DNA of 64,000 nt from Humibacter ginsenosidimutans. GTDB taxonomy: Bacteria; Actinomycetota; Actinomycetes; Actinomycetales; Microbacteriaceae. Made by a program: the position numbers and the translations under genes. The notes under the pieces are model-generated. The model did not search any database and was not told the DNA's origin. It was given only the letters and a program-made list of their open reading frames with translations. The DNA is taken from assembly GCF_007859675.1 (NCBI RefSeq), contig NZ_CP042305.1, forward strand, positions 1,736,001 through 1,800,000. Direction: 5' to 3'. Positions 13,751 to 41,784 of this stretch are shown here, one piece after another; the stretch's first letter is position 1; each line of letters opens with the position of its first letter.

Positions 13751-14982
13751 GCGTCGGCCACCAAGTCGCCGAGTGGAATGCTCGCGTCCGCGAGGCGGGC
13801 CTCATCGACCGGCTTCGCCGCGCGGATCAGCCCTTGCACCTGCTCGTTCACGTCCCACACGTTCACGTTCATGCCTGCGACGACTCTGCCGTCGCCCGTC
13901 ACCCAGAACGACACGAACTCGCGCCCCGCCACATCGCCGCGGTAGACGATGTGCGTGCCTTCCATCAGCGGCGCGTATCCGGAGAACTCCATGCCAAGGT
14001 CGAATTGGTCGGTGTAGAAGTAGGGGATGTCGTCGTAGACCACGCCGCGCTCGAGCATGTTGAGTGCGGCGGTGCGGCCGGTGCCGATGGCGTTGGCCCA
14101 GTGCTCGCTGCGCAACCGCCGCCCGAGCACCGGATGGATCGGGTTCGCGACGTCGCCGGCCGCGAAGACACCGTCGGCGCCGGTGCGCATGCCAGCATCG
14201 ACCAGGATGCCGTGGTCCACCCCGAGCCCCGCGTCCTCGGCCACGGCGGTGAGCGGCGATGCGCCGACTCCCACCACCACGACATCGGCGTCGACGACGC
14301 CGCCTTCGTACTCCACGCCGGTCACCCTGCCGTCCGCGACGCGGAACCCGGTCACGTCGACGCCCCGCACGAAGTGCACGCCGTGGTCGACGTGCAACCC
14401 CTCGAAGACCTCGCCCAGCTCGTCTCCCAGCGCTGCAGACAGCGGCACCTGCGAGTGCGACACCACGGTCACCTCGTTGCCGAAGCCGCGCACGGTGGCC
14501 GCGACCTCCATGCCGATCCAGCCCGAGCCGACCACGACCACGCGCTTGTCGCCGCTCTCCGTCGCCGACCTGATCGCTCTGGAGTCTTCGAGAGTACGCA
14601 GGGTGTGGATGCCGTCGGCCTCGGCGCCTGGCAGCTCCAGTCTGCGCGCCGCAGCGCCCGTCGCGATCAGCAGCCGGTCGAACGGAAGGGGCTCGCCGCC
14701 CTCGCACGAGATCGTGCGGTCGGCGAGATCGAGGGAGCGCACGTGCCTGCCAGAGCGCACCTCGACGTCGTGGTCGTGCCACCAGGCATCCTGCTGCACC
14801 CACAACTCGGAATCGTCGAGCGACGCGAGGTAGGCCTTGGACAGCGGCGGCCGGATGTAAGGCTTGTGCGCTTCGGCGGCGATCAGCGTGAGGTGGCCGT
14901 CGAAGCCCTCCTCGCGCAGGGTCACGGCCGCGGTGCCGGCGGCGAGGCCGCCCCCCACGATCACGAACTCGGGCACAGACAT
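13747..14982 (-). CDS. NAD(P)/FAD-dependent oxidoreductase (ferredoxin/rubredoxin reductase type)
   Basis: 411 residues. Two dinucleotide-binding motifs are present: FVIVGGGLAAGTAAVTLRE for FAD at the N-terminus and VVVVGSGWIGMEVAATVRGFG for NAD(P)H at about 150. FAAGDVANPIHPVLGRRLRSEHWANA is the FAD-contacting C-terminal motif of ferredoxin-NAD+ reductases that serve oxygenases and P450s. The lone reductase has no ferredoxin or oxygenase beside it here. It is the first gene of a three-gene operon with folP and the pyrimidine reductase. Confidence 0.88.
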   Translation of the reverse strand: MSVPEFVIVGGGLAAGTAAVTLREEGFDGHLTLIAAEAHKPYIRPPLSKAYLASLDDSELWVQQDAWWHDHDVEVRSGRHVRSLDLADRTISCEGGEPLPFDRLLIATGAAARRLELPGAEADGIHTLRTLEDSRAIRSATESGDKRVVVVGSGWIGMEVAATVRGFGNEVTVVSHSQVPLSAALGDELGEVFEGLHVDHGVHFVRGVDVTGFRVADGRVTGVEYEGGVVDADVVVVGVGASPLTAVAEDAGLGVDHGILVDAGMRTGADGVFAAGDVANPIHPVLGRRLRSEHWANAIGTGRTAALNMLERGVVYDDIPYFYTDQFDLGMEFSGYAPLMEGTHIVYRGDVAGREFVSFWVTGDGRVVAGMNVNVWDVNEQVQGLIRAAKPVDEARLADASIPLGDLVADA

Positions 14983-24254: not shown

Positions 24255-24959
24255 CTACTCGAGGTCGCTCTCCGAGAGGAGCTGCACGCTGTCGACGCCC
24301 GCGATCCCGGCCAGAGCCTCGAGAAGGCGATGGGTGTCATCCGGCCCGTTGAGTTCGAGCACCATCGCCGTGACGCCTTCTTCGGCGACGCGGTGATCGA
24401 CGCGACTCACCACCCAGCCGCCGCTCGTGATCGATCCGAGAACGCTGCGCAGAATACCCCGCCCCTCGCGGTAGACCACCTCGAGCTGGAGTTGGGCGTC
24501 CCTGCCGCGCGGGAGCACCCGCGCGAACGCCGTGAGGCCGTACGCCACCACGAAATGCAGCGCCGTCACCGCCACGGCGAGCAACCAGAGCCCGGCTCCC
24601 GCCGCCATGCCGATCGCGGCCGTCTCCCACACCGACGCCGCCGTCGTCAGCCCGCGCACGGCCCCGCGCCTGGTGAGGATCAACCCGGCGCCGAGAAAGC
24701 CGATCCCGGAGACGATCTGCGCGGCGACCCTCGACGGGTCGAGCACAACGTGATCGGAGAGCACGTCGGTGAAGCCGTACTTGCCGACCAGCAGGAACAA
24801 CGCCGACGCGGTTCCGACGATGGCCTGGGTGCGCAGTCCCGCGCTCTTGCCCCTGAGTTGGCGCTCGAGGCCGACGAGGGCGCTCAGCAGGAAGGCCAGG
24901 CCGAGTTCACCGACCTGCAGCCATCCCTGCCCTTCGAACACCGGAATCGCGTGAGTCAT
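24255..24959 (-). CDS. MgtC/SapB family membrane protein
   Basis: 234 residues from the ATG at 24959. Five hydrophobic helices span about 15-150. VGLERQLRGKSAGLRTQAIVGTASALFLLVG and VSGIGFLGAGLILTRRGAVRGLTTAASVWETAAIG are the MgtC signatures, and an ACT-like C-terminal domain follows. The attL copy of the tRNA-Thr 3' end lies immediately upstream: without the prophage, this ATG would stand only four bases after the tRNA's last base. The reading frame also continues upstream through attL to a phage-side GTG at 25037 with AGGAG before it, which would add 26 residues. Confidence 0.88.
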   Translation of the reverse strand: MTHAIPVFEGQGWLQVGELGLAFLLSALVGLERQLRGKSAGLRTQAIVGTASALFLLVGKYGFTDVLSDHVVLDPSRVAAQIVSGIGFLGAGLILTRRGAVRGLTTAASVWETAAIGMAAGAGLWLLAVAVTALHFVVAYGLTAFARVLPRGRDAQLQLEVVYREGRGILRSVLGSITSGGWVVSRVDHRVAEEGVTAMVLELNGPDDTHRLLEALAGIAGVDSVQLLSESDLE

Positions 24960-24961
24960 GA

Positions 24962-25005
24962 GAGCCGACTGCGAGGCTCGAACTCGCGACCTACGCTTTA
25001 CAAGA
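24962..25005. repeat. attL, left prophage attachment site
   Basis: 44 bases identical to 41711-41754, ending where the two flanks diverge. It is the 3' half of tRNA-Thr(UGU), from the anticodon loop to the acceptor end, left as a fragment beside mgtC. Confidence 0.95.
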
Positions 25006-25124
25006 CCGACACTTGGAGCCTCGACAGCCGTTGTCACGCTAGCACTCCTGCTCGCGGCGACTAAGGCAGTGCGCGCGTGTCAGGTCGCGCCTGACGCTGA
25101 ATCGACCGACACCGATGGGCGCGT

Positions 25125-25394
25125 GTGATGGGGCGTCGGACGGTTGAAACGGGCGAGTACGTGGCTTTCGCACGGCGGATCATCCGGGCTGCTGGTGAGC
25201 GTGTCGCGCAGGCCGACGACTGGGAGCTGTCCGAACTGCTGTCACTCCGTGACGACGTCGAGGCTGCCATCGCGCGCGGCGTCGAAGGGCTGCGCGAGCA
25301 GGGCCATTCGTGGCAGTACATCGGCACGGCACTCGGCATCCGCCGACAGAGCGCGCAGGAACGCTACGGCCGTGGCCCCAATGCGGGGGCCTAG
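25125..25394 (+). CDS. Small phage protein with HTH-like C-terminus
   Basis: 89 residues. The C-terminal segment GVEGLREQGHSWQYIGTALGIRRQSAQERYGR matches a frequent actinobacterial helix-turn-helix pattern (xWxxIGxALGxxRQxAxxR). GTG 25125 or ATG 25128 could be the start. Five bases after its stop the integrase begins. In the excised phage the long repressor form would stop at 25126-25128, overlapping this start, so the order would be repressor-this-integrase. An excisionase or regulator role fits the position but is not shown. Confidence 0.65.
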   Translation: MMGRRTVETGEYVAFARRIIRAAGERVAQADDWELSELLSLRDDVEAAIARGVEGLREQGHSWQYIGTALGIRRQSAQERYGRGPNAGA

Positions 25395-25399
25395 CACAC

Positions 25400-26278
25400 G
25401 TGGATGACCCAGCCCCAGCGCTACCGTCCGACGGTGTGCACCAACACCTGACCGTTCTACTTCCCTTGCTCGCGCACTGGAGACTCTGGCAGGAATCGCA
25501 GGGCCTGTCTGAGCGCACCATCTATGACCGTGCGTGCGTGATCACAGCCCTGTTCGAGCATGCCGGCGTCGCACCGCTGGAACTCACTCCGTTGCACATC
25601 ATCGCGTTCGTGGCTCGCGAGGGGCTGTCGCAGGCGTCGAGGGCGTCGTACCACGCCAGCATCCGGGCATGGTGCAAGTGGCTGATGTGGAACGACTACC
25701 GAGCCGATGACCCGTCCGTGAAGACACCGCGCCCAAAGCGCCCAGCGGGTGCACCGAGGCCGATCCTTGACGAGCAGCTCGTACGCCTGCTGCGCGCTGC
25801 GAACCGTCGACGCACGCGCATGATGATCCTGCTCGCGGCTCTCGCCGGGCTACGCATCCACGAGGTGGCGAAGATACACGGCCGAGACCTCGACCATTCG
25901 AGCGGGGTTCTGACTGTGACTGGTAAGGGCGGCAAGACGGCGATGATCCCGTTGTCCGACGAGCTGCTGCGTGAGTGCGAGTCGTGGCCCACTGACGACT
26001 GGTGGTTCCCGTCGTACGGTTCTGCCACGCTCCCCCACGTGACGCCCGGCGCGGTCGGCGCGGCTATCTCATCGGCGATGCAGCGGGCCGGGATCGTCGG
26101 CACGCCGCACCAACTGCGCCACTGGTACGGCACCGCGCTATTGAAGCGGGGCGCCGACCTGCGGCTCGTGCAGGGCCTCATGCGTCACGAGTCGCCGGCC
26201 ACGACGGCCCGGTACACGAAGGTCGACATGGAGCAGCTGCGCTCCGGCATCGCCCGCCTGTCTCTGCCGGCGGCCTGA
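25400..26278 (+). CDS. int: Tyrosine recombinase / phage integrase
   Basis: 292 residues from GTG 25400. A SAM-like core-binding domain (about 17-105) precedes the catalytic domain. All six active-site positions are visible: Arg152 (AGLRIHEV), Lys176 or Lys179 (TGKGGKT), His237-x-x-Arg240 (HQLRHWYG), His263 (LMRHESPATT) and Tyr272 (ARYTKVD). It would integrate the phage into tRNA-Thr at the 44-bp core that lies 395 bases to its left. It ends in SLPAA, so two terminal Ala. The start at 25400 is five bases after the preceding stop; GTG 25436 is an alternative. Confidence 0.93.
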   Translation: MDDPAPALPSDGVHQHLTVLLPLLAHWRLWQESQGLSERTIYDRACVITALFEHAGVAPLELTPLHIIAFVAREGLSQASRASYHASIRAWCKWLMWNDYRADDPSVKTPRPKRPAGAPRPILDEQLVRLLRAANRRRTRMMILLAALAGLRIHEVAKIHGRDLDHSSGVLTVTGKGGKTAMIPLSDELLRECESWPTDDWWFPSYGSATLPHVTPGAVGAAISSAMQRAGIVGTPHQLRHWYGTALLKRGADLRLVQGLMRHESPATTARYTKVDMEQLRSGIARLSLPAA

Positions 26279-39891: not shown

Positions 39892-40022
39892 GCGGCACCG
39901 ACAGTTACGAACGTGCCGGCCACGATCGCCAGCACGACGGCGACGAGCGAGCCGATGAAGGTGAGCTGCTCGCCGACGGTCCAGTCGGTCGGCCGGTGAG
40001 TGCTGCGGCGGCGGTGCCTCAT
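39885..40022 (-). CDS. Phage micro membrane protein, 45 aa
   Basis: Begins MRHRRRSTHRPTDWTVGEQL, then one hydrophobic helix (about 21-42, TFIGSLVAVVLAIVAGTFVTV). Overlaps both neighbours, in the style of the rest of the operon. Confidence 0.48.
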   Translation of the reverse strand: MRHRRRSTHRPTDWTVGEQLTFIGSLVAVVLAIVAGTFVTVGAAW

Positions 40023-40951
40023 GCGCCGACTGCGATCATCTGGTCAAACAGCTCGATCGCGGATGCCTGGAGCTTCGCCACTGTCGGCGCCAGCGCGTCC
40101 CGTGCGGCGTCCCGTGCGGCGTCCCGTGCGGCGGCCCGTGCGGCGGCCCATGCGGCGGCCCATGCGGCGTCCCATGCGACGTCCCATGCGGCGTCCCATG
40201 CGACGTCCCGTGCGGCGTCCCGTGCGGCGTCCCGTGCGGCGGCCCGTGCGGCGGCCCATGCGGCGGCCCATGCGGCGTCCCATGCGGCGTCCCGTGCGGC
40301 GGCCCATGCGGCGGCCCATGCGGCGTCCCATGCGACGTCCCATGCGGCGTCCCATGCGACGTCCCGTGCGGCGTCCCGTGCGGCGTCCCGTGCGGCGGCC
40401 CGTGCGGCGTCCCGTGCGGCGTCCCGTGCGGCGTCCCGTGCGGCGTCCCATGCGGCGGCCCATGCGGCGGCCCATGCGGCGTCCCCTGCGGCGTCCCGTG
40501 CGGCGGCCCGTGCGGCGGCCCGTGCGGCGGCGGCTTTGCTCTGCGCTGCGGTGATGGTGGGCATCGCGGCTTGGAGTGTGGCCCCATTGGTGATCGGGTC
40601 GAGGTCGGTGAAGCCACTGGAGTCGATGCCTGCGAGGTCGAGCCAGGCGGGCAGGTAGGTGCGGATGAGCCAGTCCATGGCGAGGAATCCGCGTGCCTGG
40701 TCGGAGGCGTACTGGTCGTCGGTGCCCATGATGAGCGGGAGCCTGGTCTTGAGCTGCTGCCGGTCGGTGTCGTTGAGCGCGTCGTTCAGGCCGCGCCCGA
40801 AGGCACCGAGCACGGGCGAGACACAGGCAGGTCGGTCGCTGAACGGCTCGCCCGCGACATAGGAGGCGGCTTCGAGGAGACACGTTCCCTGGCCCTGGTT
40901 GTCGTGCGCCCCGTAGGCGAGCGTGATGGTGTCGAGATCGATGGTGGTCAT
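40019..40951 (-). CDS. Phage protein with a long Ala-Trp/Arg-Asp tetrapeptide repeat
   Basis: 310 residues from ATG 40951. The N-terminal ~130 residues (DTITLAYGAHDNQGQGTCLLEAASYVAGE, GLNDALNDTDRQQLKTRLPLIMGTDD) form a conserved domain seen in other actinobacteriophages. From about 140 to 285 the chain is a run of (A-A/V)-(R/W)-(D/A) tetrapeptides that should be one long helix with Trp/Arg and Asp/Ala stripes, followed by a short unique end. It is the first gene of the leftward late operon. Function unknown; a surface-active or membrane- or DNA-contacting helix is possible. Confidence 0.75.
   Translation of the reverse strand: MTTIDLDTITLAYGAHDNQGQGTCLLEAASYVAGEPFSDRPACVSPVLGAFGRGLNDALNDTDRQQLKTRLPLIMGTDDQYASDQARGFLAMDWLIRTYLPAWLDLAGIDSSGFTDLDPITNGATLQAAMPTITAAQSKAAAARAAARAAARDAAGDAAWAAAWAAAWDAARDAARDAARDAARAAARDAARDAARDVAWDAAWDVAWDAAWAAAWAAARDAAWDAAWAAAWAAARAAARDAARDAARDVAWDAAWDVAWDAAWAAAWAAARAAARDAARDAARDALAPTVAKLQASAIELFDQMIAVGA
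40094..40531. repeat. 12-bp tandem repeats (about 36 units) within the Ala-rich gene
   Basis: Units of the type GCGG(C/A)G(T/G)CCC(G/A)T keep exact 12-base phase for about 438 bases and code four residues each. A higher-order copy exists: the pattern of W and R units beginning near 40168 recurs 156 bases (13 units) later. No stop codon occurs in any frame, hence long spurious ORFs on both strands. Confidence 0.92.
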
Positions 40952-41347
40952 GATGTTCTCCGGTTGCTTCGGTGGTGAGGGTGGACGGGAGGTGCGGCCC
41001 CCTCCATGACTGGAAGGAGCCGCGAGACTCGTGCTTCGGCGGAGCCGGGCATCGGTCGTTGCGGGCGCGTCTCTCGATCGCGCTACTGACAGGCCCCCGG
41101 AGCGGGCTTGAATGTCGGGGAGAGCGCCCGGTCGTACCACTTACCGCTCACCCGTCCGGGTCGGTGTTGGCATCTGCCAGCGGCTCGCACTGGTCAGACG
41201 TGCGGCCGTCCGCACACTTGGTCCCCGGTCGCCTCCCGGGTCTCCCAGCGCATCGGACTCGTCGACTGCGCTAGGTGCTCACGCCGTTGTGAGCGGGGTT
41301 TCCCCTGCCGGGTGCGCTGGTGGTGGGCGTGCCTCGGTTGTTTGCAT

Positions 41348-41360
41348 GCGCCCAAGATTG
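41348..41360. promoter_or_regulatory. Candidate repressor operator O1
   Basis: GCGCCCAAGATTG; matches the reverse complement of 41404-41416 in 12 of 13 bases. The pair faces each other across the rep upstream region, centre to centre 56 bp. Confidence 0.45.
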
Positions 41361-41403
41361 AGGCGTGCGACTCAGACACGCAGGCATTCGAAACGGCGTG
41401 TCG

Positions 41404-41416
41404 CAATATTGGGCGC
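41404..41416. promoter_or_regulatory. Candidate repressor operator O2
   Basis: CAATATTGGGCGC (reverse complement GCGCCCAATATTG), containing the 8-bp palindrome CAATATTG. It lies just before the -10-like TACCAT (41420-41425) of the repressor gene. Confidence 0.45.
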
Positions 41417-41430
41417 GCTACCATCGGCCT

Positions 41431-41778
41431 ATGAGCATGACGATTACGTGGACGCTCGGTGAGCTGATCGCGAAGGCACGCAAGGCTGCAGGGCTCGACC
41501 AGGCCGACCTCGCATCCGCGGTTGGGATCGCCCGAAACTCGCTATCGAACTACGAGACGGGCCGCTCGGTCCCGCCGTTCGACGTGATGGTGCGCATGGC
41601 CACGGCCTGCGACGTGAGCCTCGAATGGTTCGCGACGGCCGTTAACGCCGAAACCCCTGCCGGCACGGTTCGTGCAACGGCAGGGGTCGGTGAGCTGCGG
41701 ACGTTCTTTGGAGCCGACTGCGAGGCTCGAACTCGCGACCTACGCTTTACAAGAGCGTTGCTCTACCAGCTGAGCTAA
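41431..41778 (+). CDS. Phage repressor (XRE-type HTH), truncated and re-ended by integration
   Basis: 115 residues in the prophage. The HTH spans about 8-65 (LGELIAKARKAAGLDQADLASAVGIARNSLSNYETGRSVPP). The 44-bp att core is in frame and encodes about residues 95-108, after which seven host-encoded residues (ALLYQLS, antisense of tRNA-Thr) end it. If the core is joined to the left end of the phage as in the excised circle, the frame stays open for 40 more codons to TGA at 25126, giving 148 residues. TACCAT 5 bases before the ATG suggests a leaderless transcript. This is the layout of integration-dependent immunity. Confidence 0.85.
   Translation: MSMTITWTLGELIAKARKAAGLDQADLASAVGIARNSLSNYETGRSVPPFDVMVRMATACDVSLEWFATAVNAETPAGTVRATAGVGELRTFFGADCEARTRDLRFTRALLYQLS
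41711..41754. repeat. attR, right prophage attachment site
   Basis: 44 bases identical to 24962-25005. Here it forms the working 3' half of tRNA-Thr and, on the other strand, codes the C-terminal part of the repressor. Confidence 0.95.
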
Positions 41779-41784
41779 GTCGGC
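41712..41784 (-). tRNA. tRNA-Thr (anticodon UGU), 3' half supplied by the phage
   Basis: Acceptor GCCGACT pairs with AGTCGGC, D-arm GCTC/GAGC, anticodon stem ACGCT/AGCGT with loop CTTGTAA (anticodon TGT), T-arm GGTTCGAGCCTCG-like. It decodes ACA. The 3' end continues CCA at 41711-41709 in the phage-supplied copy, whereas the host end left at attL reads CTC; the tRNA-Arg of this window also lacks CCA. So integration rebuilt the gene and added an encoded CCA. Confidence 0.95.

What the first reader, a model, noticed from the sequence alone, without database searches (positions are those of the whole stretch)
41431..41778. The att core lies inside the repressor gene: an integration-dependent immunity switch
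Seen: the 44-bp attR core is in frame with the XRE repressor. In the prophage the protein is 115 aa (108 phage-coded, 7 from antisense tRNA-Thr). Joining the core to the left phage end, as in the excised circle, keeps the frame open for 40 more codons (begins PTLGAS, contains TAVVTLALLLAA, ends DTDGRV), giving 148 aa, and that TGA (25126-25128) overlaps the start of the next gene before int. Known: in mycobacteriophages BPs, Brujita and Charlie, attP lies in the repressor gene, the long virion form is unstable and the short prophage form is active (136 versus 103 aa in BPs). Inference: this phage uses the same switch in a different host family, with a tail that does not look like a standard ssrA-type tag.
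Basis: partly seen in the sequence, partly recalled or inferred. Interest (0 to 1): 0.88.

Follow-up and report, generated by a model that had tools for sequence, protein, structure and literature searches.

The report
Phage repressor gene cut by integration
A small prophage carries its attachment site inside its own repressor gene, so integrating into a host tRNA gene replaces an oily protein tail with a short end; this known kind of switch appears here in a less studied bacterial family and with an unusual tail.

Summary
A 44-bp direct repeat (24962-25005, 41711-41754) bounds a 16,749-bp prophage in a tRNA-Thr(TGT) gene. The right copy lies in frame in the XRE repressor: 115 aa in the prophage, 148 aa after joining the ends, with a stop overlapping the next gene. 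Relatives show it is no accident. Of 23 places examined, 14 have an att repeat over a tRNA; in 14 of 14 the repressor runs through the core and stays open past it. Of 114 database relatives, 82 carry a tRNA-Arg-type core peptide: 36 end exactly there, 46 run on 11-67 residues. This is integration-dependent immunity, published for mycobacteriophages, Gordonia phages and Bifidobacterium prophages, seen here in Microbacteriaceae. What differs is the tail: viral tails are hydrophobic in this one frame (13 of 14), and the window's belongs to a subset (11 of 68) with a membrane-helix-like segment, none ending in ssrA-like -AA (that contrast is weak). I propose that the tail inactivates the viral form by proteolysis or membrane tethering. 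Stability and activity are untested.

The parts
24962..25005 (.). attL copy of the 44-bp att core
   Evidence: exact direct repeat
41711..41754 (.). attR copy of the 44-bp att core; 3' part of tRNA-Thr and in-frame part of the repressor gene
41431..41778 (+). XRE/HTH repressor gene, prophage form, 115 aa (HTH residues about 9-68; last 7 residues from antisense tRNA)
   Evidence: Pfam HTH_3 E=4e-15, PHROG transcriptional repressor, fold prediction
25006..25128 (+). [quoted passage not shown] hydrophobic tail
25128..25394 (+). small HTH-like gene between repressor and integrase; its start overlaps the viral repressor stop
   Evidence: PHROG 686 HTH; homologue of GMA5 gp18 and PensacolaC28 gp19
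25310..26278 (+). tyrosine integrase (longest ORF; true start not fixed), C-terminus SLPAA
   Evidence: PF00589 E=5e-25, C-terminus
41709..41784 (-). host tRNA-Thr(TGT), attB site
   Evidence: ARAGORN
41653..41688 (-). terminator-like hairpin on the tRNA strand, inside the repressor coding sequence, just past the tRNA 3' end
   Evidence: z=-4.08; by eye a hairpin here in 11 of 12 loci folded; not called by the simple terminator scan
41348..41365 (+). candidate operator half (GCGCCCAAGATTG...)
   Evidence: similar inverted pairs upstream of the repressor in L055 and L058; inference
41398..41416 (-). candidate operator half, inverted (GCGCCCAATATTG...)
   Evidence: inference
25077..25096 (.). 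inverted repeat GTGTCAGG-N5-CCTGACG just before the small HTH gene
   Evidence: GTCAGG...CCTGAC before the small gene in 6 of 17 sequences scanned

Best explanation
This is an integration-dependent immunity switch. In the infecting or excised phage the repressor gene continues through attP into a 40-residue tail, and one transcript would carry repressor, small HTH gene and integrase. The tail keeps the long form from repressing, most likely because its hydrophobic segment marks the protein for proteolysis, possibly at the membrane. When the integrase recombines attP with the tRNA-Thr gene, the tail is left at the other end of the prophage, the repressor ends seven codons into host DNA, and the short form keeps lysogeny while integrase loses its promoter. 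Shown: sites, frames, both C-termini, recurrence in relatives, excess hydrophobicity in this frame. Inferred: operon, tail as the inactivating signal, immunity.
For: Frame and stop overlap. 14 of 14 prophages with att repeats keep the frame open past the core. In 9 of 9 antisense tRNA-Arg prophages the first host base completes TGA, while the phage has G or T there. Natural proteins with a tRNA-Arg-type core: 36 end at the core, 46 run on, none ends 1-10 residues past it. 24 of 35 short and 2 of 45 long forms lie on contigs over 20 kb (p=5e-10); source explains part of this, but within metagenome-type sources it is still 4 of 13 against 0 of 43 (p=0.002). Tail hydropathy: attP frame highest of three same-strand frames in 13 of 14, mean 1.82 against 0.20 and 0.02, or 0.35 and 0.13 with stops scored neutral; 22 tails average 1.64 against null 0.25, sd 0.20, 0 of 5000 sets. 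GMA5 has the same gene order and stop-start overlap. Integrase ends -PAA.
Against: No experiment. The window's tail ends DGRV, unlike the host tmRNA tag ...ALAA. Only 2 of 21 integrase rows end -AA, the window and its sister L055. The tail aligned too poorly with its nearest relative for a codon-level test. No convincing Cro-like gene was seen divergent from the repressor. The Trp or Cys after the core in 46 of 46 long forms is no evidence by itself: with TG fixed by the core, only these codons avoid a stop. One long form (P0024) lies on a 3.98-Mb contig and one (P0081) on 40.6 kb.
Confidence: 0.8

Rival explanations
1. Membrane tethering: the viral tail is a tail-anchor helix that holds the repressor at the membrane away from operators, and integration frees it; proteolysis is secondary or absent.
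For: 19 residues in a row without D, E, K, R, H, N or Q and predicted insertion energy 0.50 for the window tail; 11 of 68 tails below 1.7, all other scored tails at 2.17 or more, against 2.0% of 4000 random open frames below 1.7; 0 of 11 of these end in AA against 20 of 57 of the rest, p=0.026; predicted fold of relative P0024 is HTH, loose linker, one C-terminal helix.
Against: Without the four published -AA phages in the set the AA contrast is 0 of 11 against 16 of 53, p=0.052. The C-terminal helix has block pLDDT 52-70, and the window's prophage form is also given a low-confidence C-terminal helix (97-114), so the helix prediction does not separate the forms. Hydrophobic ends also attract proteases such as FtsH (recalled).
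Confidence: 0.22
2. The two C-termini are a by-product of the att site position and both forms repress equally; the switch is only the separation of integrase from its promoter.
For: The BPs paper reports that both forms of its repressor bind DNA alike (PMC4557955, abstract and introduction).
Against: Frame-specific hydrophobicity of the tails suggests the tail is under selection; in BPs the long form is inactive through degradation (same paper).
Confidence: 0.12
3. Chance open frame in GC-rich DNA in a decaying prophage.
For: Random open frames of this length are common; Pfam matched only 2 of 10 proteins given.
Against: Recurs in 14 of 14 prophages with repeats and in natural long forms; integrase, portal and terminase are open frames with 73-77% identical relatives in L055.
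Confidence: 0.03

Closest known systems
Gordonia phage GMA5 (cluster CW small phages)
   Same: small genome; repressor - att core at a tRNA - small HTH gene - integrase; repressor stop overlaps the start of the small gene; by eye an antisense hairpin before the core; the small gene is a homologue of the window's. Described in print as an integration-dependent system with an extra ORF (PMC5559632, passages)
   Different: tRNA-Lys site; viral repressor ends ...VAWGAAA, ssrA-like; the window's does not
Mycobacteriophages BPs, Brujita, Charlie
   Same: attP inside the repressor, long viral and short prophage forms, tRNA site, neighbouring integrase (PMC9262239 passages; PMC4557955 first part; annotation of Brujita and Charlie)
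   Different: Brujita and Charlie tails are not hydrophobic and end -AA; the BPs record was not held
M. abscessus MabB, MabC, MabN, MabO, MabH prophages
   Same: MabB adds seven host-coded residues as here; MabC, N, O and H lack ssrA-like tags (PMC8092301, passages)
   Different: no hydrophobic tail mentioned in the passages read
Bifidobacterium prophages Bb423phi2 and 689b-1
   Same: in silico joined attP gives a longer repressor (PMC6109161, passages)
   Different: 18-residue viral tails with an ssrA-like tag, as that paper states
Microbacterium phage PensacolaC28
   Same: repressor (74.6% identical over 71 aa) and small HTH gene of the same family, free phage with a long form
   Different: tRNA core in the opposite orientation; integrase annotated as two ORFs

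Membership tests
integration-dependent immunity | attP core inside the repressor reading frame | tested here: met
   14 of 14 prophages with repeats
integration-dependent immunity | prophage form shorter, ended by host sequence at or near the junction | tested here: met
   115 against 148 aa; seven host-coded residues, then stop
integration-dependent immunity | tyrosine integrase downstream of the repressor, attB in a tRNA gene | tested here: met
   order, overlap and tRNA met
integration-dependent immunity | repressor and integrase on one transcript | not testable with these tools
   gene order and stop-start overlap fit; no RNA data
integration-dependent immunity | ssrA-like C-terminal tag on the viral repressor (usual; published members without it exist) | tested here: not met
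   ends DGRV; host tag ends ALAA
integration-dependent immunity | ssrA-like C-terminus on the integrase | tested here: met
   SLPAA in the window, SLPGAA in L055; 2 of 21 rows
integration-dependent immunity | divergent Cro-like gene | tested here: inconclusive
   no convincing small ORF in 40900-41430 minus, by eye
integration-dependent immunity | long form inactive, short form confers immunity | not testable with these tools
   needs experiment

The most novel reading that the evidence does not exclude
A class of integration-dependent switches in which the viral repressor carries a tail-anchor-like hydrophobic helix rather than an ssrA-like tag: infection makes a membrane-bound (or membrane-protease-targeted) repressor, and the recombination event itself cuts the anchor off and releases a soluble, active one.
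Probability: 0.27. Interest if true: 0.75.

Novelty: new variant of a known kind. Interest (0 to 1): 0.55.

Why it matters
It carries a DNA-rearrangement-controlled immunity switch into Microbacteriaceae with natural before-and-after forms, and it offers a candidate answer to a point left open in print: what disables the viral repressor in systems without an ssrA-like tag.

Tried and rejected
Chance frame: spoken against. Standard ssrA tag: not met for the window, though 20 of 68 tails do end AA. Empty attB with both flanks: not found. Codon-level conservation of the tail between window and L055: alignment too poor. Antisense hairpin as a called terminator: the simple scan gave none on the minus strand. 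DNA-level relatives in phage records: one weak match. Trp or Cys after the core as a sign of selection: dropped, because it follows from the fixed TG.

Rows dropped: L074 (its repeat is a 14-bp contig-end overlap, not counted among the 14) was left out; PensacolaC28 was but not (pattern not met). In one search, 28 of 114 proteins fitted neither pattern and were not counted; some of them look like further long forms. Of 23 places examined, 8 gave no tRNA repeat: L056, L057, L060, L063, L064, L065, L076, L079, for several of which one end may lie outside the DNA fetched; L056 is the same phage as L058. Viral loci L034-L037 were not analysed further. The search used mostly joined long forms as query and scored only the 7996 candidates sharing most words; four of its hits were in the query.

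Full report
What is there. The window holds a 16,749-bp prophage between two exact 44-bp repeats, 24962-25005 and 41711-41754. The right repeat is the 3' part of a host tRNA-Thr(TGT) gene on the minus strand. It is also codons inside an XRE repressor gene on the plus strand (HTH_3, E=4e-15). The prophage protein is 115 aa, of which the last 7 come from the host tRNA read backwards. Joined to the left end, as after excision, the protein is 148 aa and its TGA overlaps the ATG of a small HTH-like gene that precedes the integrase.

Is it more than chance? An open frame of 40 codons would not be rare in this DNA, so I looked for relatives: 398 genomes of the family, 366 of the genus of a Microbacterium locus, viral and genome contigs and phage records. 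I examined 23 places, the window included. In 14 a direct repeat overlapping a tRNA bounds the element; a fifteenth, L074, shows only a 14-bp overlap of contig ends; eight showed none. In 14 of 14 the repressor frame runs through the core, ends at or soon after the junction in the prophage, and stays open past the core in the joined attP. The sites are tRNA-Arg(ACG) in ten, and tRNA-Thr(TGT), tRNA-Thr(CGT, my reading of a gene cut by the contig end), tRNA-Lys and tRNA-Asn in one each. In 9 of 9 tRNA-Arg prophages with the antisense orientation, the core ends TTC-TG and the first host base, A, completes a stop; the phage has G or T there.

Natural forms. A protein search with an alignment of viral forms gave 114 relatives (only the 7996 candidates sharing most words were scored, and the query consisted of long forms). 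Of these, 82 contain a core-coded peptide such as G(L/F)EPxTF. 36 end exactly at its F, none 1-10 residues later, and 46 run on 11 to 67 residues. The first residue past the core is Trp in 40 and Cys in 6, the only choices left by a fixed TG if the stop is to be avoided. Where contig length is known, 24 of 35 short forms and 2 of 45 long forms are on contigs over 20 kb (Fisher p=5e-10). Part of this is due to source, since long forms come mostly from metagenomes; within metagenome-type sources it is 4 of 13 against 0 of 43 (p=0.002). The direction fits short forms in lysogens and long forms in free phage genomes. P0024, on 3.98 Mb, and P0081, on 40.6 kb, are the exceptions.

The tail looks selected at protein level. 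Among 14 joined tails the highest 11-residue hydropathy lies in the attP frame rather than the other two same-strand frames in 13, and above all six frames in 12. The means are 1.82 against 0.20 and 0.02 with stops scored as Arg, or 0.35 and 0.13 with stops neutral. L077 is the miss. Twenty-two tails average 1.64 against 0.25 (sd 0.20) for length-matched random open frames, 0 of 5000 sets reaching it; the window alone has p=0.0105. Some tails are related to each other, so there are fewer independent cases. Random open frames reach 1.7 in 2.0% of 4000, and 0.50 in 0.6% of 1079 of similar length. None of the 11 ends in AA, against 20 of 57 others (p=0.026), but 0 against 16 of 53 when four published -AA phages are left out (p=0.052). 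The cut-off was chosen after seeing the values. By eye the 11 fall in about six lineages. A predicted fold of the natural long form P0024 shows a confident HTH domain (residues 9-68), a loose linker and one C-terminal helix at 105-122 with block pLDDT 52-70. The window's prophage form has the same HTH domain and also weak helices in its C-terminal part, so the prediction alone does not separate the two forms.

Tag. The host's tmRNA tag is ANSNSTVSAKAQVALAA. The window tail ends DTDGRV and has no such end, while the integrase ends SLPAA and the sister phage's SLPGAA; none of the other 19 integrase rows ends AA. The Brujita, Charlie and Obliviate repressors end -AA and their last 35 residues are not hydrophobic (0.45-0.63); GMA5 ends VAWGAAA at 1.39. 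In the window, the last residues of the tail overlap an inverted repeat that also lies before the small HTH gene in PensacolaC28, L053, L055, L058 and L078 (6 of 17 sequences scanned). In L055 and L058 that repeat lies well beyond the end of the repressor, which may explain why the window's tail has a polar extension.

A shared extra. Between the HTH domain and the core, inside the coding sequence, 11 of 12 loci carry a strong hairpin on the tRNA strand by eye; five of the 12 were folded against shuffles (z -3.2 to -4.9, window -4.08). Several are followed by a T run; the window's was not called by the simple terminator scan. My reading is that the phage brings its own terminator for the tRNA, so that one stretch of DNA serves as repressor code, tRNA end, att core and terminator. 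This is inference.

Compared with what is known. Passages of a review (PMC9262239) and of the M. abscessus prophage paper (PMC8092301) describe this layout: attP in the repressor, stop at the junction, in MabB seven host-coded residues, and viral repressors without ssrA-like tags that 'presumably use other signals'. Passages of a further M. abscessus paper (PMC9934374) add repressors in different frames of one core. Passages of the Gordonia paper (PMC5559632) describe GMA5 with an extra ORF between repressor and integrase, homologous to the window's small gene. Bifidobacterium prophages have the switch as well (PMC6109161, passages). So the switch is a known kind. I saw no report for Microbacteriaceae in the listings (20 of 29 listed; 15 of 203; 4 of 4) or in passages of the Curtobacterium prophage paper (PMC9862828), and none of a membrane-like or hydrophobic tail (12 of 12; 10 of 10; 15 of 583; 15 of 168). 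These cover open-licence papers only, and the 2013 founding paper was not held, so I rely on later papers' account of it. Passages of the Microbacterium phage survey say its phages mostly lack integrase and repressor genes (PMC7302621).

Verdict. Confirmed observation, a new variant of integration-dependent immunity. The part worth an experiment is the tail: whether hydrophobic tails act as a degron or as a membrane anchor.

Noticed in passing
40095-40529 (ORF 40019-41140, minus): 36 copies of a 12-bp tandem repeat code for an Ala-rich repeat protein on the strand opposite the repressor; no Pfam match for 40022-40945.
   Followed up: partly
24258-24959 minus: MgtC-family gene starts 2 nt past the tRNA-Thr 3' end in the rejoined host site; the prophage separates the two.
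   Followed up: partly
L003 (PensacolaC28) 14315-14728; L078: tRNA-Arg core lies in the opposite orientation in the repressor gene; in L078 the prophage form ends at an in-frame TAG in the tRNA. An inverted att arrangement of the same switch.
   Followed up: partly
L003 13009-13885: PensacolaC28 integrase is annotated as two separate ORFs.
   Followed up: no
25077-25096; L003, L053, L055, L058, L078: Inverted repeat GTCAGG...CCTGAC just before the small HTH gene; role unknown. Diverged versions by eye in L059 and L077.
   Followed up: partly
41348-41365 and 41398-41416: Inverted pair GCGCCCAA(G/T)ATTG upstream of the repressor, with similar pairs in L055 and L058: candidate operators.
   Followed up: partly
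P0024: A long (viral) form on a 3.98-Mb contig: tandem prophage, second site or assembly effect.
   Followed up: no
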